A DNA stretch of 64,000 nucleotides from Rhodamnia argentea. Taxonomy: Eukaryota > Streptophyta > Magnoliopsida > Myrtales > Myrtaceae. Shown piece by piece: positions 15,870 through 64,000 of this stretch. Under the pieces are notes generated by a model, which saw only the letters and a program-made list of their open reading frames with translations, was not told the origin of the DNA and did not search any database. A program made the position numbers and the translations under genes. Positions within the stretch are counted from its first letter, which is position 1; each line of letters starts with the position of its first letter. The stretch is from the NCBI RefSeq assembly GCF_020921035.1, contig NC_063152.1, forward strand, positions 29,511,903 to 29,575,902. The letters are read 5' to 3'.

Positions 15870-16470
15870 GTACGATATTCATTTCAAATTTGGACACAAC
15901 AATCAACGTTGTCATTGGTTAATACCACAAAAAAATTCAAACTGATATACCTTATAAATTTACCCAAAATTAATTTTTTAACAACAAAAAATCCCAAACT
16001 AGTATACCAGTGATAAATTTAACCTTAGTTATTTTTTGTTAAATTTTACGATCAAATTACTAAGTTGGATGACATGTGATAGTTGACGGGTATACCACTT
16101 TAGGGTTTTTATTCTCTGTCGACACAAATGTACTAGTTTGAAGTTTTTCATGATAATAATACAATTTAACGGAAGCTAACAGAGAATATATTTATTACAA
16201 ATGTACCAGTTTGAGGTTTTTAGTGGTCAAAAAATTAATTTGAGGTATATTTGTCACAAGTGTACTAATTTTGGATTTCCCATGGTTAAAATATTATTTT
16301 TGGGTAAATTTATCAAAATTATACTAATTTGAGATTTTTCGTGGTTAAAAAATTAGTTTTTGATATACTTATCACAAGTGTACCAATTTGACATTTTTCA
16401 TGGTTAAAAAATTAGTTTGAAGTAAATTTGTCATGAGTGTACCAGTTAGGGCTTTTCGTGGTATTAATCC
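15870..16470. repeat. Family B foldback array, copy 2 (nested)
   Basis: Inverted tandem units: the left side has 'accacaaaaaaattcaaact' and the right side has several 'gtaccaatttgacatttttc' type units. The core carries 'gatcaaattactaagttgga'. It is non-coding and AT-rich. Confidence 0.65.
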
Positions 16471-19144: not shown

Positions 19145-19757
19145 AGGGAAAAATTGTCAACAAAGTCCTAAACCTATTGCATTAGTATCAATTCAGTTCT
19201 AAACTTTTTTTTTATGCCAATTCAGTCCTAAACCTTTTATTAGTGCCAATTCAGTCCTAAACCTTTTATAATATTACCAATTTAGTCCTAAAAATTTTGT
19301 ATTTATGCCAATTGAGTTGATTCGGTCAATTTTGATTGGAAATCACTAGCATGGACGTCAATTATCCTACGTGGCACGGTTAGCGCTAATGTGGATATTT
19401 TTTAATATTTTAAATAATTTTTTTAAAAAAAATTGAAAAAAATGCTTAAAAATTATTCAAAATATTAAAAAATTGTCCAAGTTAGCGCTAGCCGTGCCCT
19501 ATAGGACAATCGATGTCCACGTCAGCGATTTTTGATCAAAATTGGCCAGATTAACTCAATCGGTATAAATATAAAAGATTTATGACTGAATTTGCAACAA
19601 TACATAATGTTTAGGATTGAATTAGCATCAATAAAAGGTTTAGGACTTAATTGACACCAATGCAAAATGTTTAGGACTGAATTGGCATCAAAAAAATATT
19701 TAGGACTGAATTGGCACTAATGCAATAGGTTTAGGACTTTTTTGACACTTATCCCGC
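19145..19757. mobile_element. Foldback element family A, copy 3 (best preserved arms)
   Basis: Both arms are made of several copies of a unit of about 25-35 bp. The left arm repeats 'cctaaaccttttattagtgc' style units. The right arm repeats the inverse 'ggtttaggactgaattggca'. The ends are nearly perfect inverses (gtcctaaacctattgcatta against taatgcaataggtttaggac). The GC-rich core is absent here; an AT-rich centre (about 19395-19480) is flanked by inverted blocks containing acgtggcacggttagcgcta. This is the simplest form of the family. Confidence 0.8.
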
Positions 19758-35761: not shown

Positions 35762-36733
35762 GATACGACGCCACAGTAGCAGCTACAAAGAGAAACCCCC
35801 CTAGACCATTTGCGTCTCGTATGACGGCGCATCTTGTTACATCGGAGACTGTATCCATCTGTGTTGACAGAGAATTCGTTATTGTTTTTGAGCGAGTGAT
35901 TCTTTGGCTTTGTCTGGTGAGTGCTTTTGTTGCACGGTGACTTGTTAGCCTCTTGTTGTACAGACACTCATGATGTTAATGAATTTGGGAAGGAAAGCAG
36001 AAATACTCCTGTTTCTCCATGTGCAAGGTGGTGTAACTGCAGAGAAGAACTTGGTGCGCTCCACATAATTAGACAGCTGACACTGGTGCAGCTAAGAAGA
36101 ATTCAAATGTCTGATGGGTCTCCGCAATCCGTTCTTAACTATCGTAAGAGTATCTTTTGAAAAAATTTCATGGGTTAATTTCGATAAGACAGACAGAGTC
36201 ATTGATTGATTCTTTTGACAAATATGTTCTGCCCATACACAATGAACATGATGATAGATCTAGCTACCAGGTGAACGATAGGTTGATGGGTCGTGTCGGT
36301 CCGAAACAACACGGTAACAAGTGCAATCCCCGAAGAAAAAATGCCGAGAATGAAACATTCATGTACAAAATCAAGATATGTGCTCCTACTTTGGATCGCT
36401 TGAGGAAATCCCGAGTAAATGAAGCACCTTTTCGGACAAAAATTCTTCCTTTGACCGTTTGCTGCTTGGTACTGGTAGCATCTATTTTGGTTTAGGTTTC
36501 TCTTCTCTTAGAAAATAAAAAAGCTTCATTTAAAGGAACTTTAAAATGAGGATGTTTTAGAAAACCAACTCGAAATACAGTTGTTGCCCGCCTCGTGTTC
36601 GTATAACCTCAACAGTCGTTTTGTCTGTCAAATCGATGGAAGATTTAAAATCCTGCCTTGTCCTCTCACTCTTTCCCTTTTTCCACACCCAGTTGACAAA
36701 GCTCCGCACCTTGTCACACCAGGCACTCTTCCA
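35762..36733 (+). other. VPS55 3' UTR and PPR gene upstream region
   Basis: Intergenic space between two genes on the same strand. Open frames at 35758-36160 and 36157-36495 lack domains and conservation cues and partly use non-ATG starts. The open frame of the PPR gene also extends up to 36581, but only through a non-ATG codon. Confidence 0.5.
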
Positions 36734-38878
36734 ATGATTCCGAGATACGGCTCTCGCTCTTTTCTGGATAGCATAACGTGTTCGACCTTTCGATGGACGC
36801 TGGATTATCTCCGCAAGGGTAAGCTTCTAGATGCACGGAACGTGCTCGAGAGAATGCCCGACAGAGGACCTCATGGCCGAGTCGGGCACTGGACATCGCT
36901 GCTATCGAGATTTTCTAAATTTGGTTTCATTGATGAAGCTAAAGCTCTCTTCGACATCATGCCGAAGAAAAACCAAGTGACATATAATGCAATGTTGTCT
37001 GGGCTCGTTCAAAGTGGGAGAATTAGTGAGGCTTGTAGCTTTTTCGAGCAAATGCCGGAGAGAAATGTCGTGTCATGGACTTCAATGCTTTGTGGGTATG
37101 CGAATGTGGGGAGGATTGATGAGGCGAAGAGGTTGTTCAGTGCTATGCCGGAGAGGAATGTTGTCTCTTGGAACGCCATGGTTGTTGGGTTGATTAGGAA
37201 TGGCAATTTGGACGAAGCTAAGTGGGTTTTTGATGCAATGCCTATAAGGGATGTAATTTCTTGGAATGCTATGATTTCTGGGTACACTGAGAATTTCAGA
37301 ATGGAAGAAGCTAGGAATTTGTTTGAAGAAATGGAGGAAAGGAATATTGTTACTTGGACCATTATGGTAACTGGTTATTGTAGAATTGGAAATGTAGAAG
37401 AAGGTTATACTTTGTTCAAGAGAATCCCCGAGCAGAATGTTGTTTCTTGGACTGCCATGATTGGAGGGTATGCCTGGAATGGCTTCTACAGAGAGGCTCT
37501 GTCTATTTTTCTAGAAACAAAGAAGAATTTCAATCTCGAACCAAACAAGGAAACCTTCATCTCGCTCGCATATGCCTGTGCTGGAGTTGGATTTAGTCAC
37601 CTTGGCAAGCAGCTACATGCAAACTTGATACTCAGAGGACTGGAGTCTGATGATGATGATGGGAGGCTAAGCCAAAGTTTGATACACATGTACACTTCGT
37701 TTGGAGTAATGGACTTTGCTCATCACATTGTTGTCGGAAACATAAAGAGCTGCTCTGCCCAGTTGTGTAATTTGATGATTAACGGTTATATTCGGAGTGG
37801 ACAGTTGGAAAAGGCTAACAATTTCTTTGTCACGGCACCTATGTGTGATAGGATCTCATGGACATCCATGATTGATGGTTATTTGAGTGTTGGACAAGTT
37901 TCTAAAGCACGTGAGCTCTTCGACGTCATGCCTGATAGGGATGCTGTGGCATGGACAGCAATAATATCAGGTTATGTCCATAACGAGTTGATTGTTGAGG
38001 CTATTGACTTGTTCTCTGAAATGCGGAGTCAGGGGTTTCATCCTCTTAATCTTACATACGCAACTCTAATTGGAGCAGCTGGTGCAGTGGCAAATCTTGA
38101 CCAGGGAAAGCAGTATCATTCACTCTTGCTGAAATCTAATTTTGAGCATGACCTGACCGTTCAAAACTCACTGATCTCTATGTATGCTAAGTGCGGGGAG
38201 ATAGATGGTGCAAGTAGTATTTTCACGAGCATGATAGATCGGGATATTGTTTCGTGGAATTCCATGATCATGGGTTACTCGAACCATGGGTTGACGAATG
38301 AAGCTCTGCAGGTTTTTGAGTCCATGATAAAATGCGGAAGCCACCCAAATTCGACGACCTTCTTGGGGATTTTGTCAGCATGTAGTCATGGAGGGTTAGT
38401 TGACCGTGGGTGGGAGGAGTTCAATTCCATGAGGGACGTCTATGCAATTACTCCAGGCCTGGAGCACTATATCTGCATGATTGATCTCTTGGGCCGTGCA
38501 GGAAAACTAGAGGAAGCTGAAGACTTCGTGCTGCGGCTGCCTTTCGAACCAAATTCAGCTGTTTGGGGGGCTCTTCTTGGTGTATGCGGATTAAAGAAAA
38601 ATTCCAAAATTGCTGCCCGTGCTGCCAAGAAGCTTCTTGAACTGGATCCTTTAAATGCACCAGCCCATGTGGTGCTGTGTAACGTATGTGCAGCAAATGG
38701 ACAGTACATCGATGAGACAATTTTGAGGAAGGAGATGGGTCAGAAGGGTGTACGGAAAACTCCTGGATGCAGTTGGATACCACTGAAGGGGAGAGTTTAT
38801 TTGTTCCTATCAGGGAGTAAAATATCTTTGGAAGCTGATGAAATGCTATCTCTCCTGCTTGGAAATCTTGATGAGTGA
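36734..38878 (+). CDS. Pentatricopeptide repeat protein (PLS class, E-type), organellar
   Basis: A single-exon gene of 714 aa counted from the first in-frame ATG (MIPRYGSRSFLDS). The frame is open to 36581, but the extra 51 codons contain no ATG. About 15 PPR motifs are visible, with classic phrases such as KNQVTYNAMLSGLVQSGRI, ERNVVSWTSMLCGYANVGRI and RDVISWNAMISGYTEN. The C-terminus has E-type motifs (LEHYICMIDLLGRAGKLEEA, PGCSWIPLKGRVYLF) and no DYW domain. PPR proteins of this class bind organellar RNA, often for C-to-U editing. The start is compatible with a mitochondrial presequence. It resembles Arabidopsis At1g32415. The absence of introns is typical of the family. Confidence 0.93.
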   Translation: MIPRYGSRSFLDSITCSTFRWTLDYLRKGKLLDARNVLERMPDRGPHGRVGHWTSLLSRFSKFGFIDEAKALFDIMPKKNQVTYNAMLSGLVQSGRISEACSFFEQMPERNVVSWTSMLCGYANVGRIDEAKRLFSAMPERNVVSWNAMVVGLIRNGNLDEAKWVFDAMPIRDVISWNAMISGYTENFRMEEARNLFEEMEERNIVTWTIMVTGYCRIGNVEEGYTLFKRIPEQNVVSWTAMIGGYAWNGFYREALSIFLETKKNFNLEPNKETFISLAYACAGVGFSHLGKQLHANLILRGLESDDDDGRLSQSLIHMYTSFGVMDFAHHIVVGNIKSCSAQLCNLMINGYIRSGQLEKANNFFVTAPMCDRISWTSMIDGYLSVGQVSKARELFDVMPDRDAVAWTAIISGYVHNELIVEAIDLFSEMRSQGFHPLNLTYATLIGAAGAVANLDQGKQYHSLLLKSNFEHDLTVQNSLISMYAKCGEIDGASSIFTSMIDRDIVSWNSMIMGYSNHGLTNEALQVFESMIKCGSHPNSTTFLGILSACSHGGLVDRGWEEFNSMRDVYAITPGLEHYICMIDLLGRAGKLEEAEDFVLRLPFEPNSAVWGALLGVCGLKKNSKIAARAAKKLLELDPLNAPAHVVLCNVCAANGQYIDETILRKEMGQKGVRKTPGCSWIPLKGRVYLFLSGSKISLEADEMLSLLLGNLDE

Positions 38879-46947: not shown

Positions 46948-47922
46948 TCATTCTTCCATCTGTCCCTCTTTGGCGGCTTTAGAACTCCGAAAATCCTTCT
47001 TCAACTCCGAGACCCTCTTGACACAATCCACCTTCGTCTTACCCGGGACGGCAGCTGCAATTTTCTCCCACCTCATCAGCGCATCCTTTGGAAACGCCTT
47101 CAATGCATTGAGCAGCGCAATGTCTTCCGCGCTGCTCCATTCACTCTCCCTTCTGACCTCGCCACTGCCATTACCATCCGCCCCCTCATTCAGCCTCTCG
47201 TCCAGAGGCTTCCTGTTCTTCAAGAACTGAGCGTACGAGTCCTTGTCGCTCGACTTCTTATCGGCCAATTCCTTTGCTTTCTTGATCACACTCTCCAATC
47301 TGTGACCCCCATTGAAAGCCTCTGCAATTATCTCCCACCGCCTCGGCTTCCCTGCCGGATGCTTCACCAGTTGCTTCCTCAAGAGCTCGATCTCATCCTC
47401 ACTCCAATCCTTCTCCTTCTCCCGAAACCCTAGATCACTCTTCCCCTGAATCACTAAACCATTTCCCTCGATCTTCTTCCCCAATTGTTCATCAATTTCA
47501 GCAATTGGCGGTGAAAACGCAACATTATTACCTGGAGGCTGCCCTTTAGGCCGCTTCTGGGACGGCTTCCTCTTCGTTTCCTCCACGACCTGGGGTTGCT
47601 GATCGGGGAACTCGACGATCGGGCCGCGGCCGACGCGGACGGAGCCGCCGGTGAGGGAGGACGGGGCGAAGGGGCCGACGAGGAGGGAAAGGGAAAGCCA
47701 GAGGAGGAGAGATTGGAAGGGCTCGGAGACGTAGAGGAGCGAGAGAGAGATGAGGACAGCCGAGAGTGCGGTGGTGACGAAGAGGAAGGGCTTGTTCAGC
47801 TGCTGCCGTTGATCGGAGGTTGAAGAAGAAGAAGAAGAAGACGACGACGACGGAGGAGGAGGAGGAGGAGCCGCGCGCGCTTGGAAGAGGAAGCGAGGTC
47901 GGTCGGCGTCTATGAACTCCAT
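46948..47922 (-). CDS. Membrane-anchored MYB-like transcription factor (maMYB type)
   Basis: An intronless gene of 324 aa starting MEFIDADRPRFLFQARAA at 47922. The frame runs upstream to 47952, but only through a GTG. A Pro-run and a run of ten or more Ser (about 20-36) precede two hydrophobic segments at about 46-85 (FLFVTTALSAVLISLSLLYV, then LLLWLSLSLLVGPF). Two SANT/Myb-like domains follow: WSEDEIELLRKQL ... RRWEIIAEAF near 173-220 and EWSSAEDIALLNALKAFP ... RWEKIAAAVPGKTKVDCVKR near 262-312. This matches Arabidopsis maMYB (At5g45420), an ER-anchored MYB linked to root-hair growth. The Ser/Pro runs come from perfect trinucleotide repeats and are probably length-variable. Confidence in the family is high. 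Confidence 0.92.
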   Translation of the reverse strand: MEFIDADRPRFLFQARAAPPPPPPSSSSSSSSSSTSDQRQQLNKPFLFVTTALSAVLISLSLLYVSEPFQSLLLWLSLSLLVGPFAPSSLTGGSVRVGRGPIVEFPDQQPQVVEETKRKPSQKRPKGQPPGNNVAFSPPIAEIDEQLGKKIEGNGLVIQGKSDLGFREKEKDWSEDEIELLRKQLVKHPAGKPRRWEIIAEAFNGGHRLESVIKKAKELADKKSSDKDSYAQFLKNRKPLDERLNEGADGNGSGEVRRESEWSSAEDIALLNALKAFPKDALMRWEKIAAAVPGKTKVDCVKRVSELKKDFRSSKAAKEGQMEE

Positions 47923-47948
47923 GGATCTCCACGCCTCCGGGACTGCGC

Positions 47949-47957
47949 TCACGCCAT
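47949..47957 (-). promoter_or_regulatory. Minimal upstream ORF before the maMYB start
   Basis: The minus strand reads ATG GCG TGA, ending 26 nt before the maMYB ATG. A two-codon upstream ORF this close could reduce initiation if it lies in the mRNA leader. Confidence 0.45.
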
Positions 47958-49029: not shown

Positions 49030-49895
49030 ATCAAGAAAAAATTGCTCAATAAGTCCTACACTTATTGCACATTAACCAGTTCAATTTTTAACCTTTTTAA
49101 TTGTATCAATTTAGTCCTAAACCTAATGTACGAAGGTAGTCTTAAACCTTTCATTGTGAAAATTTAGTACTAAACATTTCGATCATTTGTCAAATTAGTA
49201 CTAAAACTGTTGATAATTTGCCAATTTAGTAATTATGGTCAATTTTGGCCGAAAAGTGCCAGCGTGGACAATTCTTGTAAATTTTCTGATTTTTTTGCCT
49301 TTTTTCCTTATATTTTTTTTTCATTTTTCTCTCCGCTAGTCATTGTCGCGCCTTGTCGATCCACAGGCCATCGGTGAAGGCCTTGACACCCTCCCCCGAT
49401 CCGGTAAGGTCGGCCTTTGGCAACCTAGGCATGGGCATCCCTCGCTTGAGGCCGACAAAGGTTGCTTGCCATCAATGAGGCCGATGATGGCCAACAAAAG
49501 GAAAAAGAGAAAAAAAAAATACAAAGGAAAAAGAAGGAAAAAATAAAAAATTTAAAAAATTACAAAAATTATTCATGTTCGTGCTGGCCGTGCTACTTTT
49601 GATGACCAACACTAACTAGCCGTAGCGCCAATGATTTATGTCAAAATTGGTCGAAAGGACTATATTGGCAAATCGTTAAAAAATTTAGAATTAATTTGGC
49701 ACAATTGAAAAGTTTATGACTAATTGAAAAATCGTTAAAAGATTTAGAATTAATTTGGAAAAATTGAAAAACTTATGACTAAATTGGCAAATTGTCAAAA
49801 GTTTTAGGACTAAATTGGCACAATTGAAAGATGTAGGACTGAATTGGTCACAGTACAATAAGTTTATAAATTTTTGGACAATTTTTTGTAGGATT
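49030..49895. mobile_element. Foldback element family A, copy 5
   Basis: The left arm (ctacacttattgcacattaa, several 'ttagtcctaaacc' units) and the right arm ('ttaggactaaattggcacaa' units, ending 'cagtacaataagttta') are inverted. A GC-rich core lies at 49338-49500 between T-rich and A-rich flanks, bounded by 'agtgccagcgtggac' and 'ccaacactaactagccgtag'. No transposase is present. Confidence 0.75.
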
Positions 49896-50370: not shown

Positions 50371-53300
50371 ATTTTTATTTTTTGGTAAGATAAGTATGTA
50401 TTGATCATCCAAAAAGCTAGGTACAAAGGAGCCGGACACAAAGAAACCATGAATTCAAGATGGCACAGAATGTGGCATAGGGAGTTCATGGGTGAAGCAA
50501 CTGCAAAAAAACAACAACGAGATGAACGGAACAAAGGCAAACAAGCCAAAAGAAGAAGGCCAAACAACCGGCCAAAAGCTAAGGGGCAAACAAGCAAAGA
50601 AGAAGTATAGGCCAAACAACCGGCCGGAAAGTAAGGCCAGACAGACGGCCAAAGACTAGCAGGGGATAGCAAACTAGAGAGAAGACCTAACTGTACATGT
50701 ACGGGAAGGGGAAAAGCAACAAGGCAAAAAAGAAGGGGGCTGTGGAGGAGTGTGCGGCGGCTCCATGGCAGCAATCCCGAGAGTGACAAGAGAAGATAAC
50801 AGCGGGAGCAAAAGGCCGGCAGCCTTGTTGAATGGAGTGAAGGTCCCGCCCGTAGCAAGTGGCGGGAGGTGGTGGCCTGAGCAAGAAAACCAGAAGCAGC
50901 GGACTTGTTGCAAAGGAGCAGCGGCAAGTTGGCAGCAAGAAGAAAAGCCTTCCGGGTAGCTTCCGAGAGGAGAGCCAGCAATAGGAGCAAGTACAACAAC
51001 CTGGAGAAGACAGCAGCACCACCGGAAGTGGATGGTTGACGAAGAAGTAGCTTCTGAAGAAGAGCGTCCCAAATAACGCCGGAGGTGACATCTCCGATAG
51101 GGAACAACGGCGGTAGGGCTCCAACAAACCAACATCGGTGTGTTTAGTGGAGGAAGGCACATCCACCTCCCAAGAGCAGAAGAGATGTCATTGTTGACAT
51201 GTTGGAGAAAGGAGCAGCAATAGGTAAGGGAGAGAAATGACAGCAGCAGAAGAAGAGAAAGGCGGCACGGAACCGGGCTAAAAATCCGCAAACGGGGAGG
51301 AGATCATAAGTAGGAAGGCTCCCATAGTCCGGTGTCGTCAGAGTCATCCGGATCAGCAACAACAGAGGACGGCAGCAAATATATGTCACACTAGGAAGGG
51401 CATCCATACCATGGGGACAGCAAAGGCAACATCCATGAACCAGCGTGTAGACATGTAGTAGTTGCAACAACTACACCCGACGTGAAGGCTCATTAAAGAT
51501 AGAAGCCGAAAGTCCCCAGTTGGTTTGAATGCGTACATTACACGAATGATCTCGAATATGGCCCAAAGATAAAGCTTTATCCTTGATGAGTTTGGTGAGG
51601 TGGGACAGCATCGCGTGCAGAAAAAGCTGCTTATTGCGGAATAGTATATCATTCCATGTAGTCCATATAATGTGGCATAGTGCACCAAGGGAAAATCTCG
51701 CGATCCTATGAGAGAAGGAAGATGCACCCAAGTGTGTCTTTGCCCATCTAATAAACCCGTCCCATGGCCGATTACGCCAATGTAAGAGACAGTTGGAAGC
51801 CCAAGTGGAGGCTAGTTGACCGGTGATAGAGCATCCAAAGAAGAGATGATCCACAGAGTCCGGTGTACTATGGCAAAAAGCACAAGAGCCATCGTCTATC
51901 CTACAATATTGAAGAAGTAAGATTTGGGTAGGAAGACGATTGTGGGATGCTAGCCACATAATAAAAGTGTATCTTGGAGCGAAGGCCTTATCCCATATAA
52001 AAGAGTGTCAATGGACAGCTTGGCCTCTCGGCCTAATAATGTCCCAAGTCGAAGAGACAGAGAAGCGACCGGAAGCTTGACCACTCCAATAGAACCTGTC
52101 ATCCATACTTTCCACTAAAGATGGTGGCGGATCCAACCAAGGCTGCATAGTAGTAAGTAAGGGAGATGGTGGGAAATCGGAGGAGAAGAAATCCCGTACC
52201 GAGATTGTGTGAGGGATCCCAGCTCTATATATTTCCCCCGGTGTAAAGAACTTGTAAAGCGGGCCTTTAACATGCCGGTGATCAAACCGGAAGGATGTTG
52301 AGACTCCATTTCCCAACTTCCACTTGAAATGGTCAGAGAAGTCTTGGCGAAGGTCCAGGATTTTCTTCAAAGACCATGAACAAATCGTTGGTCTAGTGAC
52401 AATCCGGAAGTTGGATTTCCGTAGGAAATTGGAATGAATCCACTTACACCAAAGAGATTCCTTATCGTCGAAGAGAGATCAAATATGTTTTAGCATCAAG
52501 GCCTTGTTACAATCCCCAAGCCTACGAATCCCCAGGCCACCTTCCTTTTTAGGGCAACATATATTTGCCCAGGAGACTTTGGCCCCTCCAACCCCAAGAT
52601 TAGGGCCCTTCCATAGAAATTGGCGTAGGATAACCTCAATGTTCTTCAAAACTGATTTCGGGAGGGAGAATACGGTAGCCCAATAAACTTGGATGGAATG
52701 GAGCACCGATTTCGATAGTTGTAGACGGCCGGCATAAGATAAGTAGCGCCGAGCCCACGAACGTGCTCTGGCCGTAATAGCGTTAACTAGGACATTACGG
52801 TCATTCTTGCTAAGCCTGGATGAAATTACCGGGACTCCCACGTAGCGGAAGGGTAGTTTCCCTTGTTGAAAGTTCAGCACGTGTTGAATTTGTGTAAGCG
52901 TGGTCGGGTGCCCACCAGGAGCGTAGAACTCGCTCTTGTTTGGGTTTGGAATGAGGCCCGACCAATCGGAGAACAAGTCCAAACCATTCTTAAGTAGCTC
53001 GATAGATGGCAAATGGCCTTCCGAAAATAGTAAGACATCGTCGGCAAAAAATAGATGGGAGAGCCTAAGATGTTTGCACCTCCAATAAGGTTTAAATCCA
53101 GCGCTTGAAGATTTGTCGAGTAAAATTCCGGAAAGCACTTCCATAATCAATGTAAAGAGGTAGGAAAGAACTCGTGTAACTCCCCGTTAATCGCGACCGA
53201 GAATTTTGGCGTAGTAACACACTCCATGATCGGGCCAACAAGATAGTCCGGGAAACCGAAGGCTTGAAGGACTAGCCTAAGGAACTCCCAACCGACAGTG

Positions 53301-54418
53301 TCATATGCTTTTGAGAAATCAACCTTGATAGCACATCTAGAGCTATATTGAGGATGGTGGAAGTTCGCAAAAAGTTCTTGGGCAATCAAGATATTGTCGC
53401 TGATTCTCCTCCCTTTAACGAAGGCTGTCTGCGAATGGGAAATGATCGATGGCAAGATGGAAGCCACTCTATTGGCCAAGAGCTTAGTGATGCATTTATA
53501 TACTGTGTTACAACATGCAATGGGCCTAAAATCATTCATTGCCAAAGCATTGGGTGACTTTGGGACAAGCGATAAAATGGTTGCATTTAGTTCCTTGAGT
53601 AGCCGGCCACTAACAAAGAAGTCCATGACTGCGGAGACGATGGAAGGGCCAATGATATCCCAAGCCGATATAAAGAATTCCGCATTGAAGCCGTCGGGGC
53701 CCGGTGCTTTACCTTTAGGTAAAGAGAGAAAGGTTGCACGAATCTCCTCCTCGGTGAATGGTCTTGAGAGAGACTCCACCCGATCGTTCGAGAGGGTGTG
53801 GGAGATAAAGCCCACGATCTCAGCAACACATGGCCGAGTAGTAGCCGCTTCCGAGTTGAGAAGTGTCTCATAGTGGCTAACAATTCGGGCCTTCACTAGA
53901 TTCGGTTCCGTAAGAGTTGAGCCATCGGATCCGATTACTGAAAGAATGCGGTTATGCAGTCTTCTCTTGTTGACAAAGTGGTGAAAGTATTTAGTGTTCA
54001 AGTCTCCCTCCTCGAGTCACTTGATTCTTGACTTTTGTTTGAAGAAAGACTCCTCTTGTAGTCTAAGAGTTGCAAAAGTCTGTATATGTTCCCGCTCTCG
54101 GTCTACTAAAGCCTCATTCATGGGGTCATGTTCCAATGCCTCTTGGATCAATGATAATTCAATCCTGGCTTGTTCCGTGCGTTCCGAGATATCGGAGAAG
54201 GAACTCCTATTGAGTCGCTTGAGCCGGCATTTGAGTAATTTCAGTTTAGCACATATCACGAACATCGGGGTGCCGAGAAAGGGGGTAGCCCAAACCTGTG
54301 AGACTATCTCCTTGAAGGAGGGGTGAGTGGACCAAAAGTTAAAAAACTTGAATGGTTTCTTGGATTGAGGAGGGGGCAGAATTTTCACTACCATAGGAGT
54401 GTGGTCACACGAGTACAA
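50371..54418 (-). mobile_element. L1-type LINE, 5'-truncated and inactive
   Basis: Minus strand. The element begins inside the end of the endonuclease domain (YSCDHTPMVVK at 54418) and lacks ORF1 and most of the endonuclease. The reverse transcriptase follows: KGKAPGPDGFNAEFF, FRPIACCNTVYKCITKLLAN, CAIKVDFSKAYDTVGWEFL, then FFADDVLLFSEG at about 53040, and a zinc-knuckle zf-RVT region near 51880 (CAFCHSTPDSVDHLFFGC). Breaks: the GLRQGDPLSP block is deleted at about 53150 with a frameshift, and in-frame TGA codons stand where Trp is usual (54017, 52479, 52008). After the ORF there is about 1.1 kb of 3' UTR ending in an A-rich tail at 50370-50385 (T-rich on plus). The ORFs in that tail are not genes. 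Confidence 0.9.
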
Positions 54419-54729: not shown

Positions 54730-55185
54730 ATGGAGAAGTGTCAAACCAAGCTCAGTGCATTGGCAATTCTGCTGGTGATTGCATCATGTAGGTGGCCCCC
54801 TTTCATTCATTTTCTCTGATCCCTCACTTATCATTGCCGCTATCATTGTCATGATACTGGTGATTGTTCCTTCTTTTAAGGTTTTGTGGTCTCGCAAGCT
54901 GAGGAAGTGCGCTGCCAGACTAACCCGGATTGCGAACCTAAGCAGTGTGATGCTGGGCTTGTTCCCATCTGTGTGAAGGACATAGGCATATGTGTATGCA
55001 AAAGCTACGTGATGGCTCGAGTTGCGACACGCCTGAGGACTGTCGCTACATCTGTGGTCATCCATCGGACCCAACCTGCTTCACCTGTTCCCAGAGAAAA
55101 TGTGCCTGCTTGTGTTGGTGAGGGCGCGTGTACGGGAGATTGTTTGAACGAATCGATCTTTGTCCTCAATAAGACGTGTTGTTGA
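54730..55185 (+). CDS. Defensin-like secreted peptide gene 1 (second domain out of frame)
   Basis: Exon 54730-54787 encodes the signal peptide MEKCQTKLSALAILLVIAS. The intron has GT at 54788, and exon 2 starts at 54881. The mature part opens with one six-Cys domain, C-x5-C-x4-C-x7-C-x6-C-x-C (about residues 31-59), a spacing like CS-alpha-beta/defensin-like and NCR peptides. A 2-nt length difference at about 55007-55010 relative to gene 2 then throws the frame off. Translation runs to a stop at 55185 (120 aa total) through non-conserved sequence. The signal-peptide exon with a phase-1 intron at its end is the standard gene structure of plant defensin-like peptides. Expected location is extracellular. 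The TATA box is degenerate. It may be a decaying gene or one that now makes a single-domain peptide. Confidence 0.65.
55011..55121 (+). pseudogene. Out-of-frame second Cys domain of gene 1
   Basis: In the frame not used by the upstream domain, 37 codons end at TGA 55119-55121. They carry Cys spacing C-x5-C-x3-C-x7-C-x2-C-x4-C-x-C-x-C and the phrase ICGHPSDPTC. This matches the C-terminal domain of gene 3 (ICGHPKEPKC ... GKCVCPC). It shows that the ancestor encoded two Cys domains in one chain. Confidence 0.75.
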
Positions 55186-56899: not shown

Positions 56900-57366
56900 A
56901 AAATGGTTAATACCACGAAAAATCTCAAATTGGTACACTTGATACACATTTACCCCAATAACCACCAAAAAGATTAAACTGGTACATCTTTGATAAATTT
57001 ATCTCAAACTGTTACTCTTGTGGCAAATTTACCTTTTGTTAGTTTTTTATTAAATTTTATCGTCAAATTGCCGGTTTGGTTAACATGTGGCAATTATCGG
57101 ATGTACATCTTTGGGGTTTTTACTCTGTATTTGTCACATGTGTGTCAATTTGAGATTTTTGGTGGTATTAATCTAATTTAACATAAACCAACGAAGGGTA
57201 AATTTGTGACGTGTACACCAGTTTGAGGTTTTTGATAGTCAAAATAATTAGTTTAGGGAAAGTTTGTCACACGTGTACTAGTTTGAGGTTTTTTATGGTA
57301 AAAAAAATAGTTTATGGTAAATTTGTTACGGGTGTACCAGTTTGAGGTTTTTCGTGGTATTAACCA
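56900..57366. repeat. Family B foldback array, copy 4
   Basis: The ends are inverse: 'ggttaataccacgaaaaatc' at about 56905 against 'tttttcgtggtattaacc' at about 57348-57365. Several tandem inner units of 'gtaccagtttgaggtttt' are present. The position directly upstream of gene 2 parallels the split array upstream of gene 1, so array and gene were duplicated together. Confidence 0.7.
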
Positions 57367-57367
57367 A

Positions 57368-57600
57368 TATAAAAATTGTGTGTTTTGGTTAACAAAAATG
57401 GTGTGGAAATAGCATCATCATATATACTGCAAACTAATTATTAACTTACCAGTAGAAGCGGATATGCATTTCGATGAAGGCCCATATAAAAATTGTGTGT
57501 TTTGGTTAACAAAAATGGTGTGGAAATAGCATCATCATATATACTGCAAACTAATTATTAACTTACCAGTAAAAGCGGATATGCATTTCGATGAAGACCC
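57368..57600. repeat. 116-bp tandem duplication upstream of gene 2
   Basis: 57368-57483 and 57484-57599 are almost identical (landmarks atataaaaattgtgtgtttt, 'tagcatcatcatatatactg', 'agcggatatgcatttcgatg'). Gene 1 has one diverged copy at the corresponding place. The block ends about 285 bp before the gene 2 ATG. Confidence 0.85.
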
Positions 57601-57781
57601 ATGAAAGGTTACCCTAAAGGAAAACCCAATAATATTAGCAGGGTTACACGATGAATCAGCAGAACTAGCAACTTAATAATTACACCTTCCATTTTTTTTT
57701 TTTTTTTGGTAAGGAATTACACCTTCCATTTTTGGATTTCAATTTTCCAAAAATTCCAAAAATGCCAAAACTCATGACATC

Positions 57782-57884: not shown

Positions 57885-58198
57885 ATGGAGAAGTGTCAAA
57901 CCAAGCTCAGTGCACTGGCAATTCTGCTGGTGATTGCATCATGTAGGTGGCCCCTTTCAGTCATTTTCTCTAATCCTGCGCTCATTATTATCATAATTAT
58001 CATGATTATACTAATGATTGTTCCTTCTTTTAAGGCTTTGTGGTCTCCCACGCTGAGGAAGTGACTTGCCAGATTGACCCGGATTGCAAGCCTAAGAAGT
58101 GTGATGTTGGGTATGCTCCCATCTGTGTACAAGGCATATGCGTATGCATCAAGACCAAGAGCCTAGATGGCCCGATTGCAGATGGCAAAGAGCCTTAA
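57885..58198 (+). CDS. Defensin-like secreted peptide gene 2 (single domain)
   Basis: Exon 57885-57942 encodes the same signal peptide as gene 1 (MEKCQTKLSALAILLVIAS). The intron ends at 58034, and exon 2 runs 58035-58198 to a TAA. The product is 73 aa with one Cys domain, C-x5-C-x4-C-x7-C-x4-C-x-C (TCQIDPDCKPKKC ... GICVC), after a predicted cleavage near SHAEE. The downstream second domain is present in the DNA but in another frame. The TATA box, intron sites and 3' UTR (tctcaataagacgtgttg near 58330) are intact, so a short secreted peptide is plausible. Six-Cys spacing of this kind suggests an antimicrobial or signalling role, but no function can be assigned. Confidence 0.7.
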
Positions 58199-58199
58199 A

Positions 58200-58280
58200 G
58201 ACTGTCTCCCTGTCTGTCTCCATCCAACTAAGCCAAGTTGCTCCATCTGCACCGAAGGAAAATGTGTCTGCTTGTGTTGA
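58200..58280 (+). pseudogene. Out-of-frame second Cys domain of gene 2
   Basis: 27 codons in a different frame carry C-x3-C-x7-C-x2-C-x4-C-x-C-x-C (DCLPVCLHPTKPSC, EGKCVCLC), ending TGA at 58278-58280. The domain lacks an intact first Cys in the same frame because of small indels between 58170 and 58200, and it lies behind the TAA that ends the gene 2 product. Confidence 0.75.
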
Positions 58281-61654: not shown

Positions 61655-63112
61655 ATGGAGAAGGGTCAAGTAAAGCTCAGTGCATTGGTCCTTCTATTGG
61701 TGATTGCATCAAGTAGGTTTCTCTCATCCCTCATTTATTATTATTATTATCACTTTCAAATGCAGAACTGCACTAATGAATTTTCCAAACTCCCCTTCTT
61801 TTAAGGTCTTGCCATCTCCCAAGCTGCAGAAGGAGAAGGCGCATGTCTTCCGGAGATGTGTCCTGGAGGGTCACGTGCCGTCTATGTACATGGCAAGTGC
61901 AAATGTGCCCCGCCTTGTGCATCAGATCAGTGTCCTGTTGGGTCTCAAAAGGTCTACACACACGGCAAATGTTTCTGCGTTCCATCAGAGCGTCGGGATG
62001 TCGTGGCTAGTCAGGAAAATGGAGGCGCTTGTATTCCAGAGTGTCCTCAAGGGTATCATGCCATCATTGTAGATGGAAAATGTCAATGTGTTCCAACAGA
62101 GCGTCGAGATGTCGCGGCTAGTCAGGAAAATGGAGGCGCTTGTATTCCAGAGTGTCCTCAAGGGTATCATGCCATCATTTTAGATGGAAAATGTAAATGC
62201 GTTCCAACGGAGCGTCGGCATGTCGCAGCTAGTCAGGAAAATGGAGGTGCTTGTATTCCAGAGTGTCCTCAAGGGTATCATGCCATCTTTGTAGATGGCA
62301 AATGTAAATGCGTTCCAACAAAGCATCGAGATGTCGCTGCTAGTCAGGAAAATGGAGGCGCTTGTATTCCAGAGTGTCCTCAAGGGTATCATGCCATCAT
62401 TGTAGATGGAAAATGTCAATGTGTTCCAACAGAGCATCGGGATGTCGCGGCTAGTCAGGAAAATGGAGGCGCTTGTATTCCAGAGTGTCCTCAAGGGTAT
62501 CATGCCATCATTGTAGATGGAAAATGTCAATGTGTTCCAACGGAGCGCCGGCATGTCGCAGCTAGTCAGGAAAATGGAGGCGCTTGTATTCCAGAGTGTC
62601 CTCAAGGGTATCATGCCATCTTTGTAGATGGCAAATGTAAATGTGTTCCAACGGAGCGCCGGGATGTCGCGGCTAGTCGGGAAAATGGAGGCGCGTGTAT
62701 TCCAGAGTGTCCTCAAGGGTATCATGCCATCTTTGTAGATGGCAAATGTAAATGCGTTCCAACGGAGCGCCGGCATGTCGCAGCTAGTCGGGAAAATGGA
62801 GGTGCTTGTATTCCCGAGTGTCCTCAAGGGTATCATGCCATCTTTGTAGATGGCAAATGTAAATGCGTTCCAACAAAGCATCGAGATGTCGCTGCTAGTC
62901 GGGAAAATGGAGGCGCTTGTATTCCAGAGTGTCCTCAAGGGTATCATGCCATCTTTGTAGATGGCAAATGTAAATGTGTTCCAACAGGGCACCGGGATTC
63001 CTTGGCTAGTTGTGTCGGCACTCATGACTGTGTCTCTATATGTGGCCATCCGAAGGAGCCAAAATGCTCGGTGCGTGCCAAGGGAAAATGTGTATGCCCG
63101 TGTAACCATTGA
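61655..63112 (+). CDS. Secreted tandem-repeat cysteine-rich precursor (defensin-like family, 454 aa)
   Basis: Exon 61655-61712 encodes the signal peptide MEKGQVKLSALVLLLVIAS. The intron is 61713-61805, and exon 2 runs 61806-63112. After cleavage near SQAAEG come two diverged modules (ACLPEMCPGG ... HGKCKC and CASDQCPVGS ... HGKCFC). Nine nearly identical 37-aa modules follow (61988-62986), each with C-x3-C-x12-C-x-C (GGACIPECPQGYHAI, VDGKC-x-C). The chain ends in a DEFL-like domain (CVGTHDCVSICGHPKEPKC, GKCVCPCNH). CX3C plus CXC is the core of the CS-alpha-beta fold, so each module could be a two-disulfide mini-fold. Linkers VPTERRDVAAS/VPTKHRDVAAS carry basic pairs that could be protease sites, as in multi-peptide precursors. 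The frame is intact over 1.3 kb and the TATA box is present, so it is probably expressed. The function is unknown. It is not a match to any family I can name. Confidence 0.85.
61988..62986 (+). repeat. Nine exact-length 111-bp coding repeats
   Basis: Units start at 61988, 62099, 62210, 62321, 62432, 62543, 62654, 62765 and 62876, with no indels. The middle of each unit (tgtcctcaagggtatcatgc) is invariant. Variation sits in the linker (gagcgt/aagcat/gagcgc; cag/cgg) and before the last Cys pair (attgtagatggaaaatgtca versus tttgtagatggcaaatgtaa). Units 3-4 and 8-9 share linked variants. Confidence 0.97.
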
Positions 63113-63584: not shown

Positions 63585-64000
63585 CACAACTCGTCCTACC
63601 TCATCAAACTAGCTTTGTTCCTCGCAGACATATTTAGGACAATGCCATTATAACAATTGAAGCAATTTTCAATAAGCAAACTCCAAGAAAAATGTTGATA
63701 TATGATCCACAAAATTGACTTGGAAAAAGCGTAGGATCATCTTAAGTGGTTATGTATTGAGGAACTCTTCACATGTTTGGTATTCCATAATGTATGGTTG
63801 AGTTATTTTTGAACTGCATCACTTTAGCATCCGTATAAGTTTTGTGGAAACGCGATACAACAGAGGATTTCTTTCCAAGCGGGGAAATTCGTCAGGGCGA
63901 CCCTCTCTCGCCATATATCTTTGTGGTATGCATTGAAAGACTATCTCATCTTATTGATGCTCCAGTAAAGTCAAAGAGGAAGAAACCTTTTCATTTTGGA
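63585..64000 (+). pseudogene. LINE reverse transcriptase fragment, second copy (cut by window edge)
   Basis: Nearly identical to 59161-59580 (offset 4424 bp; landmarks agctttgttcctcgcagaca, 'gttttgtggaaacgcgatac', 'cagggcgaccctctctcgcc'). Together the two copies bracket the precursor gene. The YADD part would lie beyond the window end. Confidence 0.88.

What the first reader, a model, noticed from the sequence alone, without database searches (positions are those of the whole stretch)
61655..63112. Secreted precursor with eleven CX3-4C-x12-CXC modules plus a defensin-like cap
The sequence shows a signal peptide, two diverged and nine near-identical 37-aa modules, and a final six- to eight-Cys domain. 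CX3C with CXC defines the CS-alpha-beta core, and here it is reduced to four Cys and strung into one chain. Plant defensin-like genes normally encode one domain. I know of no described plant family of this build, so it is a candidate new class of multi-peptide precursor.
Basis: partly seen in the sequence, partly recalled or inferred. Interest (0 to 1): 0.92.

Follow-up and report, generated by a model that had tools for sequence, protein, structure and literature searches.

The report
Plant gene with repeated mini-defensins
A plant gene, one of a local family of small secreted-type cysteine-rich peptide genes, has multiplied one peptide unit into eleven copies within a single protein; the layout resembles known plant multi-peptide precursors, but the unit comes from a different peptide family.

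Summary
Window 61655-63112 (+) is a two-exon gene (intron 61713-61805) for a 454-aa protein: signal peptide, eleven four-Cys modules (C-x3/4-C-x12-C-x-C; two diverged, nine near-identical of 37 aa) and a seven-Cys C-terminal domain. The array frame is the only stop-free frame of six, with pN/pS 0.24; amino-acid changes are depleted (7 of 17 events, 12.6 expected, P 0.0011).

It is not alone. Three tandem paralogs (two in the window, one 3' of it) share the exon layout, and ten short relatives sit on the same chromosome. In paralogs A and B the first domain is six-Cys and resembles late-nodulin/NCR peptides (below Pfam's cut-off). The repeated module is that domain lacking Cys1 and Cys4, presumably one whole disulfide.

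Motif and ancestry differ here, so this looks like a convergent variant. Processing, expression and function are untested; models gave beta-hairpins, not a confident CS-alpha-beta fold.

The parts
61655..61712 (+). Exon 1 of focal gene F: start codon and most of the signal peptide (MEKGQVKLSALVLLLVIAS)
   Evidence: 15 of 19 residues identical to exon 1 of A and of B. Signal peptide judged by eye; no predictor was run
61713..61805 (+). Intron, 93 nt, phase 1, GTAGGT...TTTTAAG
   Evidence: same position in A (93 nt), B (92), G (87) and two short relatives (92, 94)
61806..63112 (+). Exon 2: rest of signal peptide, eleven modules, C-terminal domain, stop
61844..61906 (+). Module 1 core, diverged, C-x4-C-x12-C-x-C
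61916..61978 (+). Module 2 core, diverged, C-x4-C-x12-C-x-C; groups with the first C-x4-C module core of paralog G (support 91/86)
62015..63013 (+). Modules 3-11: nine 37-aa (111-nt) units, C-x3-C-x12-C-x-C; the last residue of the ninth unit is the first Cys of the cap
63011..63109 (+). C-terminal seven-Cys domain ('cap'); homologous to the second domain of A, B and G
   Evidence: tblastn E 1.5e-9 (B) and 7e-9 (A); whole-genome search lists 4 places, all in this cluster
54730..54787 (+). Paralog A, exon 1
54881..55185 (+). Paralog A, exon 2 (in-frame product 120 aa); six-Cys first domain at 54913-54999
   Evidence: PF07127 E 4.7e-4, 20.9 bits, below cut-off 30.4
55023..55115 (+). Paralog A, second domain (8 Cys), in another frame than the first
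57885..57942 (+). Paralog B, exon 1
58035..58198 (+). Paralog B, exon 2 (product 73 aa); six-Cys first domain at 58067-58147
   Evidence: PF07127 E 5.3e-5, 23.9 bits, below cut-off 30.4
58203..58277 (+). Paralog B, second-domain sequence (7 Cys), after B's stop and in another frame

Best explanation
Gene F is an expanded member of a local plant family of secreted-type cysteine-rich, NCR/late-nodulin-like DEFL genes. An ancestor with a signal-peptide exon, a six-Cys domain and a second Cys-rich domain was duplicated in tandem. In the F/G lineage the first domain lost Cys1 and Cys4 (by analogy with CS-alpha-beta peptides, one complete disulfide) and was then multiplied inside exon 2 by unequal exchange. 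Most likely working (inferred): the protein enters the secretory pathway, each module closes with two disulfides, and proteases cut the exposed 17-residue linkers (VPTERRDVAASQENGGA type), so that one transcript yields about eleven copies of a small peptide plus the cap, in the manner of alpha-hairpinin precursors. The peptides would most likely serve in defence or in extracellular signalling. Shown: gene structure, family, frame, selection, the reduced Cys framework, near-identity of the units. Inferred: direction of Cys loss, secretion, disulfides, cleavage, role.
For: Gene model and modules. Paralogs A, B and G with the same two-exon layout. Six-Cys domains of A and B align with the eleven modules, with Cys2, 3, 5 and 6 shared and Cys1 and Cys4 missing in 11 of 11. 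PF07127 matches for A and B, below cut-off. Two complete short relatives with the same exon layout carry one C-x3-C-x12-C-x-C module each. Selection on the array. Seven G units form one group (85/99) and module 2 of F pairs with the first C-x4-C core of G (91/86). Architecture precedent with released peptides: Sm-AMP-X, 12 motifs (PMC7191063, passages).
Against: No expression, proteomic or cleavage data. No linker protease motif is strictly shared by F and G: the Asn of F's ENGG is Gly in G, and RR (5 of 9 units) or HR (4 of 9) in F is HK in 6 of 7 G units. Modules carry little charge (net -3 to +1), unlike typical cationic antimicrobials. F's cap has an odd number of Cys. Models are low-confidence and show no helix in the module. 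PF07127 matches are under the cut-off. In three of the four cluster genes the second domain is cut off by a frame change or a stop. G's array shows weak constraint (pN/pS 0.55, another frame 0.58). The A/B second domain has dN/dS 0.75. In the tree F's own units are not a supported group and only 1 of 18 inner branches is strongly supported.
Confidence: 0.55

Rival explanations
1. The protein works as an intact multivalent chain: eleven small disulfide-held hairpins on fixed-length linkers act together outside the cell (binding many copies of a target, or as a matrix or decoy protein), and are not cut apart.
For: Nine of the eleven linkers are 17 residues long (from the translation; the one after module 1 has 3 residues and the one before the cap 11), while no protease motif is strictly shared by F and G. 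MtDef5's two separate domains together did not equal the linked protein (PMC5700942, passages).
Against: No direct evidence. In alpha-hairpinins, the nearest precedent, peptides are released, and an uncut cassette of MiAMPs had very little activity (PMC7191063, passages).
Confidence: 0.27
2. Minisatellite-like expansion in a decaying gene cluster: the array is a by-product of slippage or unequal exchange and has no function of its own.
For: A and B have the second domain out of frame and G has an internal TAG. Of the ten short loci, three have stops, one is a fragment and two lack GT at the expected donor. No transcript evidence.
Against: F is open over 454 aa; array pN/pS 0.24, the lowest of six frames; nonsynonymous changes depleted, P = 0.0011; all 36 core Cys of the nine units present; F/G cap dN 0.122, dS 0.333.
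Confidence: 0.13
3. F is an alpha-hairpinin (Sm-AMP-X-type) precursor.
For: Same build: signal peptide, many four-Cys modules, C-terminal domain; the linkers reported for EcAMP, 16-27 aa, include 17 (PMC7191063, passages).
Against: The defining motif C-x3-C-xn-C-x3-C is met by 0 of 11 modules, the second pair being CXC; A and B are six-Cys DEFL-like; the models give beta-hairpins (low confidence); F has an intron, whereas the wheat genes described had none.
Confidence: 0.03
4. A Furin-like or EGF-type cysteine-rich receptor region, as Pfam reports (PF00757, 33.1 bits, above its cut-off of 26.8).
For: E 6.2e-8 over the array; BsNagA_N is also above its cut-off.
Against: Four arrays of eight units with shuffled non-Cys residues also gave unrelated families, 3 of 4 with at least one above its cut-off (for example DUF6140 at 3.3e-18), so scores summed over repeats are unreliable here; G's first 205 aa of exon 2 give no match.
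Confidence: 0.02

Closest known systems
Alpha-hairpinin multimodular precursors (Sm-AMP-X, Tk-AMP-X, EcAMP)
   Same: Plant precursors with signal peptide, 5-12 tandem four-Cys modules with linkers and a C-terminal domain (PMC7191063, passages)
   Different: Second Cys pair CXC instead of CX3C; nine of eleven modules near-identical; DEFL-like relatives; intron present; the C-terminal domain is itself Cys-rich and DEFL-like
NCR / late nodulin peptides (PF07127)
   Same: Signal-peptide type; six-Cys version in A and B matches PF07127 weakly; NCRs have four or six Cys (PMC8110993, passages)
   Different: Below curated cut-off; F itself has no match; eleven modules in one chain; nodule expression unknown. 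That four-Cys NCRs keep other Cys positions than these modules is recalled, not tested
Bi-domain plant defensin MtDef5
   Same: Two defensin domains in one plant gene, joined by a linker (PMC5700942, passages)
   Different: Two 50-aa domains and net charge +16, against eleven near-neutral four-Cys modules plus a cap
Ib-AMPs of Impatiens
   Same: Several four-Cys peptides from one transcript (PMC4695807, passages)
   Different: CC and CXXXC motif, basic 20-aa peptides said to lack homology to other peptides; not compared here by sequence
Nasonins-2 and -6 of Nasonia (insect) and fungal defensin-like peptides
   Same: Internal repeats of a defensin unit, 4-5 in nasonin-2 and -6 (PMC2853521, passages); altered cystine frameworks in fungal DLPs (PMC5234102, abstract)
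   Different: Animal and fungal; each unit of nasonin-6 has its own exon, here all units lie in one exon

Membership tests
Alpha-hairpinins | Cys motif C-x3-C-xn-C-x3-C | tested here: not met
   0 of 11 modules; all end in CXC
Alpha-hairpinins | Precursor of signal peptide, tandem four-Cys modules, C-terminal domain | tested here: met
   against PMC7191063 (passages)
Alpha-hairpinins | Helix-loop-helix fold | tested here: inconclusive
   Model shows beta-hairpins, mean pLDDT 52.9
NCR / late nodulin (PF07127) | Pfam score above curated cut-off 30.4 | tested here: not met
   B 23.9, A 20.9 bits; F's first 89 aa not listed; F whole not listed
NCR / late nodulin (PF07127) | Four or six Cys in the mature peptide | tested here: met
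   A and B first domains six, F modules four per unit; the whole F chain has 51
NCR / late nodulin (PF07127) | Expression in symbiotic nodule cells | not testable with these tools
   No expression data; host species unnamed
DEFL / CS-alpha-beta peptides | C2-x3-C3 and C5-x-C6 motifs | tested here: met
   9 of 11 modules CX3C + CXC; 2 of 11 CX4C + CXC
DEFL / CS-alpha-beta peptides | Full framework including Cys1 and Cys4 | tested here: not met
   Absent from 11 of 11 F modules; present in A and B first domains
DEFL / CS-alpha-beta peptides | Helix packed on a beta-sheet | tested here: inconclusive
   No helix in the module or in B's first domain; short helix 79-84 plus hairpin in the cap, low confidence; Foldseek with B's domain none at E<=0.001
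Furin-like (PF00757) | Score above cut-off that is specific to the sequence | tested here: not met
   Above cut-off, but shuffled arrays gave false matches above cut-off in 3 of 4 cases

The most novel reading that the evidence does not exclude
An NCR-like defensin peptide has been turned, by coordinated loss of its Cys1-Cys4 disulfide and in-exon multiplication, into a polyprotein that releases about eleven copies of a new four-Cys (C-x3-C-x12-C-x-C) peptide class, independently of alpha-hairpinins; repeat number, free to change by unequal exchange, would then set peptide dose and could vary between individuals.
Probability: 0.33. Interest if true: 0.74.

Novelty: new variant of a known kind. 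Interest (0 to 1): 0.52.

Why it matters
The family shows the apparent steps side by side: six-Cys domain genes (A, B), short relatives with a single four-Cys module of F's type, and two genes (F, G) with arrays of distinct unit sequence. That makes the origin of plant multi-peptide precursors testable from one chromosome, and suggests that the alpha-hairpinin type of polyprotein has arisen more than once, from different peptide families.

Tried and rejected
Homology by protein search: 3 of 3 searches gave nothing useful. Whole F protein: one match at E 8, named ferredoxin, not meaningful; 148-aa piece of exon 2: none; alignment A1: none. The collection seems poor in plants (inference), so this does not show rarity. 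PDB by sequence: none. Foldseek with the six-Cys domain model: 28 matches at E<=10, none at E<=0.001; scorpion toxins and a four-module eggshell-membrane protein are among them and were treated as noise. The second model (mean pLDDT 52.9) was not searched.

Considered and dropped: Furin-like domain (shuffle control); a universal Asn-Gly cut site for asparaginyl endopeptidase with possible cyclisation (idea from recall): Asn is in all nine 37-aa units of F, but G has REGG before six of its seven 38-aa units and LEREG before the first; a second intron rejoining the domains in B: there is no GT between the end of its first domain and the second-domain sequence (letters); taxon: not determined, 'Myrtales' left open.

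Not obtained: genome-wide count with PF07127 (six requests, none answered). One search failed on a file name and was rerun.

Literature: eight searches (one search returned 0 because all six terms were required; the lists were capped at 25 of 109, 15 of 148, 15 of 73, 15 of 45 and 12 of 29 papers). Nothing in the titles and abstract starts listed showed a plant precursor of DEFL-derived four-Cys modules; this covers open-licence PMC papers only, in part.

Full report
OBSERVATION. Gene F has exon 1 at 61655-61712, a 93-nt phase-1 intron at 61713-61805 and exon 2 at 61806-63112. The product is 454 aa with 51 Cys: a signal peptide (by eye), module 1 (CLPEMC...GKCKC), module 2 (CASDQC...GKCFC), nine 37-aa units (ENGGACIPECPQGYHAI[IF][VL]DGKC[QK]CVPT...) and a seven-Cys C-terminal domain. 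The DNA array has period 111, 9.3 copies, 92% matches.

IS IT CODING? Over modules 3-10, frame +0 is the only stop-free frame of six and has pN/pS 0.24; the other five give 0.47, 0.77, 0.85, 1.37 and 2.68 (pairwise comparisons, not independent). Counting changes against the consensus, 7 of 17 are nonsynonymous against 12.6 expected when the same changes are placed at random, P = 0.0011. Module 11 was left out of both tests because its end is fused to the cap, and modules 1 and 2 because they are diverged. This speaks for translation and purifying selection, but is not a transcript.

FAMILY IN THE WINDOW. With F masked, tblastn found two paralogs on the same strand. A: exon 1 54730-54787, intron 93 nt, in-frame product 120 aa. 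B: exon 1 57885-57942, intron 92 nt, product 73 aa. Both have a six-Cys first domain, CQTNPDCEPKQCDAGLVPICVKDIGICVC (A) and CQIDPDCKPKKCDVGYAPICVQGICVC (B), and both carry a second domain homologous to F's cap, but in another frame than the first; B also has a stop before it. The frame offsets differ between A and B, so the losses look independent (inference). The 7 shared Cys of the two second domains are all kept despite 22 base differences over 75 nt, P = 0.00075 under random placement, which suggests constraint for much of their divergence; against that, dN/dS between A and B is 0.75 for the second domain and 0.54 for the first.

ORIGIN OF THE MODULE. In the alignment of A, B and the eleven modules, Cys2, Cys3, Cys5 and Cys6 of the six-Cys domain are shared and Cys1 and Cys4 are missing from 11 of 11 modules. 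In CS-alpha-beta peptides Cys1 pairs with Cys4 (recalled). If that pairing holds here, one entire disulfide was lost. A and B match Pfam Nodulin_late PF07127 at E 4.7e-4 and 5.3e-5, but at 20.9 and 23.9 bits, under the cut-off of 30.4. The direction (six to four) is inferred from the commonness of six-Cys frameworks, not from an outgroup.

BEYOND THE WINDOW. The window is C3:29511903-29575902 of an unnamed 346.7-Mb assembly in 74 contigs. A fourth gene, G, lies 3' of the window at C3:29578091-29579380: the same exon layout (87-nt intron), two diverged modules (the first C-x10-C, the second C-x4-C), seven 38-aa units (C-x4-C-x12-C-x-C) and a cap 79% identical to F's over 34 residues (dN 0.122, dS 0.333 from 9 and 6 differences). 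G has a TAG in its fourth 38-aa unit in this assembly. Over six of its seven units pN/pS is 0.55 against 0.58 to 1.16 in the other frames, so constraint there is weak. tblastn showed no further copy in 10 kb 5' of the window or in the fetched 39 kb 3' of it (only matches of E above 0.02 in L004-L007).

GENOME-WIDE. F's exon 2 as query gave 9 matches, all on C3: F, G and 7 short ones at 16.98-17.01 and 17.93 Mb. The exon 2 of a short relative gave 28 matches: 9 to F, 5 to G, 13 to short loci on C3 (16.98-17.01 and 17.90-17.97 Mb; ten loci, three of them seen as two pieces) and 1 weak on C11 (E 0.5). The cap gave 4 matches: F, G, B, A. Gene B gave 2, B and A. The tool calls its counts lower bounds. 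Of the ten short loci, I tried a spliced model for the 5 with a recognisable exon 1: 2 gave a complete 91-aa product with the same exon layout (C3:16983408 and C3:16992360, minus strand), 2 have no GT at the expected donor and 1 has a stop. The two complete ones have a first module with only 2 or 1 Cys and end in a single module of F's type (C-x3-C-x12-C-x-C).

EVOLUTION. A tree was built of 19 module cores (11 of 11 from F; 8 of 9 from G, its first being left out by the pattern used) and 2 first domains. F module 2 pairs with the first C-x4-C core of G (91/86), the other seven G cores form one group (85/99), and A and B stand apart (100/100, midpoint root). F's remaining units are unresolved; 9 of 18 inner branches are weak and only 1 is strongly supported. 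The pattern fits an ancestor with more than one module, followed by separate homogenisation in F and G, but does not prove it. Within F, modules 3/6 and 5/10 are 98.2% identical, as expected from block exchange.

STRUCTURE. AlphaFold2 with a 13-row alignment gave B's six-Cys domain mean pLDDT 69.6 with a beta-hairpin and no helix. Two modules plus cap, with 10 rows, gave mean pLDDT 52.9: a beta-hairpin per module, and in the cap a short helix plus a hairpin. The fold is open, and the claim of a CS-alpha-beta core is not confirmed for the module.

PFAM CAUTION. Pfam reports Furin-like, and also BsNagA_N, for F above their cut-offs. Four arrays built from eight of F's units with the non-Cys positions shuffled also gave unrelated matches, 3 of 4 with at least one family above its cut-off. 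Whole-protein scores over near-identical repeats should not be used here.

MECHANISM. Most likely (0.55 for the whole statement) F is a secreted precursor of about eleven copies of a small two-disulfide peptide plus a cap. Nine of its eleven linkers are 17 residues long; the nine 37-aa units carry RR (5 of 9) or HR (4 of 9) after the CXC, but the exact motif is not shared with G, so the protease cannot be named. Release is inferred from alpha-hairpinins, where Sm-AMP-X was isolated and the other 11 peptides of its precursor were confirmed by mass spectrometry (PMC7191063, passages). Low net charge (-3 to +1 per unit) argues against a simple cationic membrane-lytic role. The main rival is an intact multivalent chain (0.27).

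KNOWN OR NEW. The build is known from alpha-hairpinin precursors; a two-domain plant defensin (PMC5700942, passages) and insect defensin arrays (PMC2853521, passages) are also known. F is not an alpha-hairpinin (0 of 11 modules meet the motif) and not a formal PF07127 member. I rate it a new variant of a known kind.

Noticed in passing
L003:2689-3978 (C3:29578091-29579380): Second multi-module gene (G) just 3' of the window, with its own 38-aa units and a TAG in one of them
   Followed up: yes
C3:16.98-17.01 Mb and 17.90-17.97 Mb (L010-L016, L024-L032): Ten short relatives, several of them broken; weak matches to B's first domain lie among those at 16.98-17.01 Mb
   Followed up: partly
window 51474-51959 (-), 53150-54001 (-), about 63860-64000 (+): LINE-type reverse transcriptase pieces flank the cluster (RVT_1 and zf-RVT; the last judged by eye)
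   Followed up: no
window 36611-38875 (+): Single-exon PPR protein with E motif
   Followed up: no
window 46951-47952 (-): Protein with two Myb-like domains
   Followed up: no
window 57363-57602: A 117-nt tandem duplication, 96% matches, 5' of paralog B
   Followed up: no
window 16190-16444, 19164-19738, 49656-49847: Several arrays with a period of 59-60 nt scattered over the window
   Followed up: no
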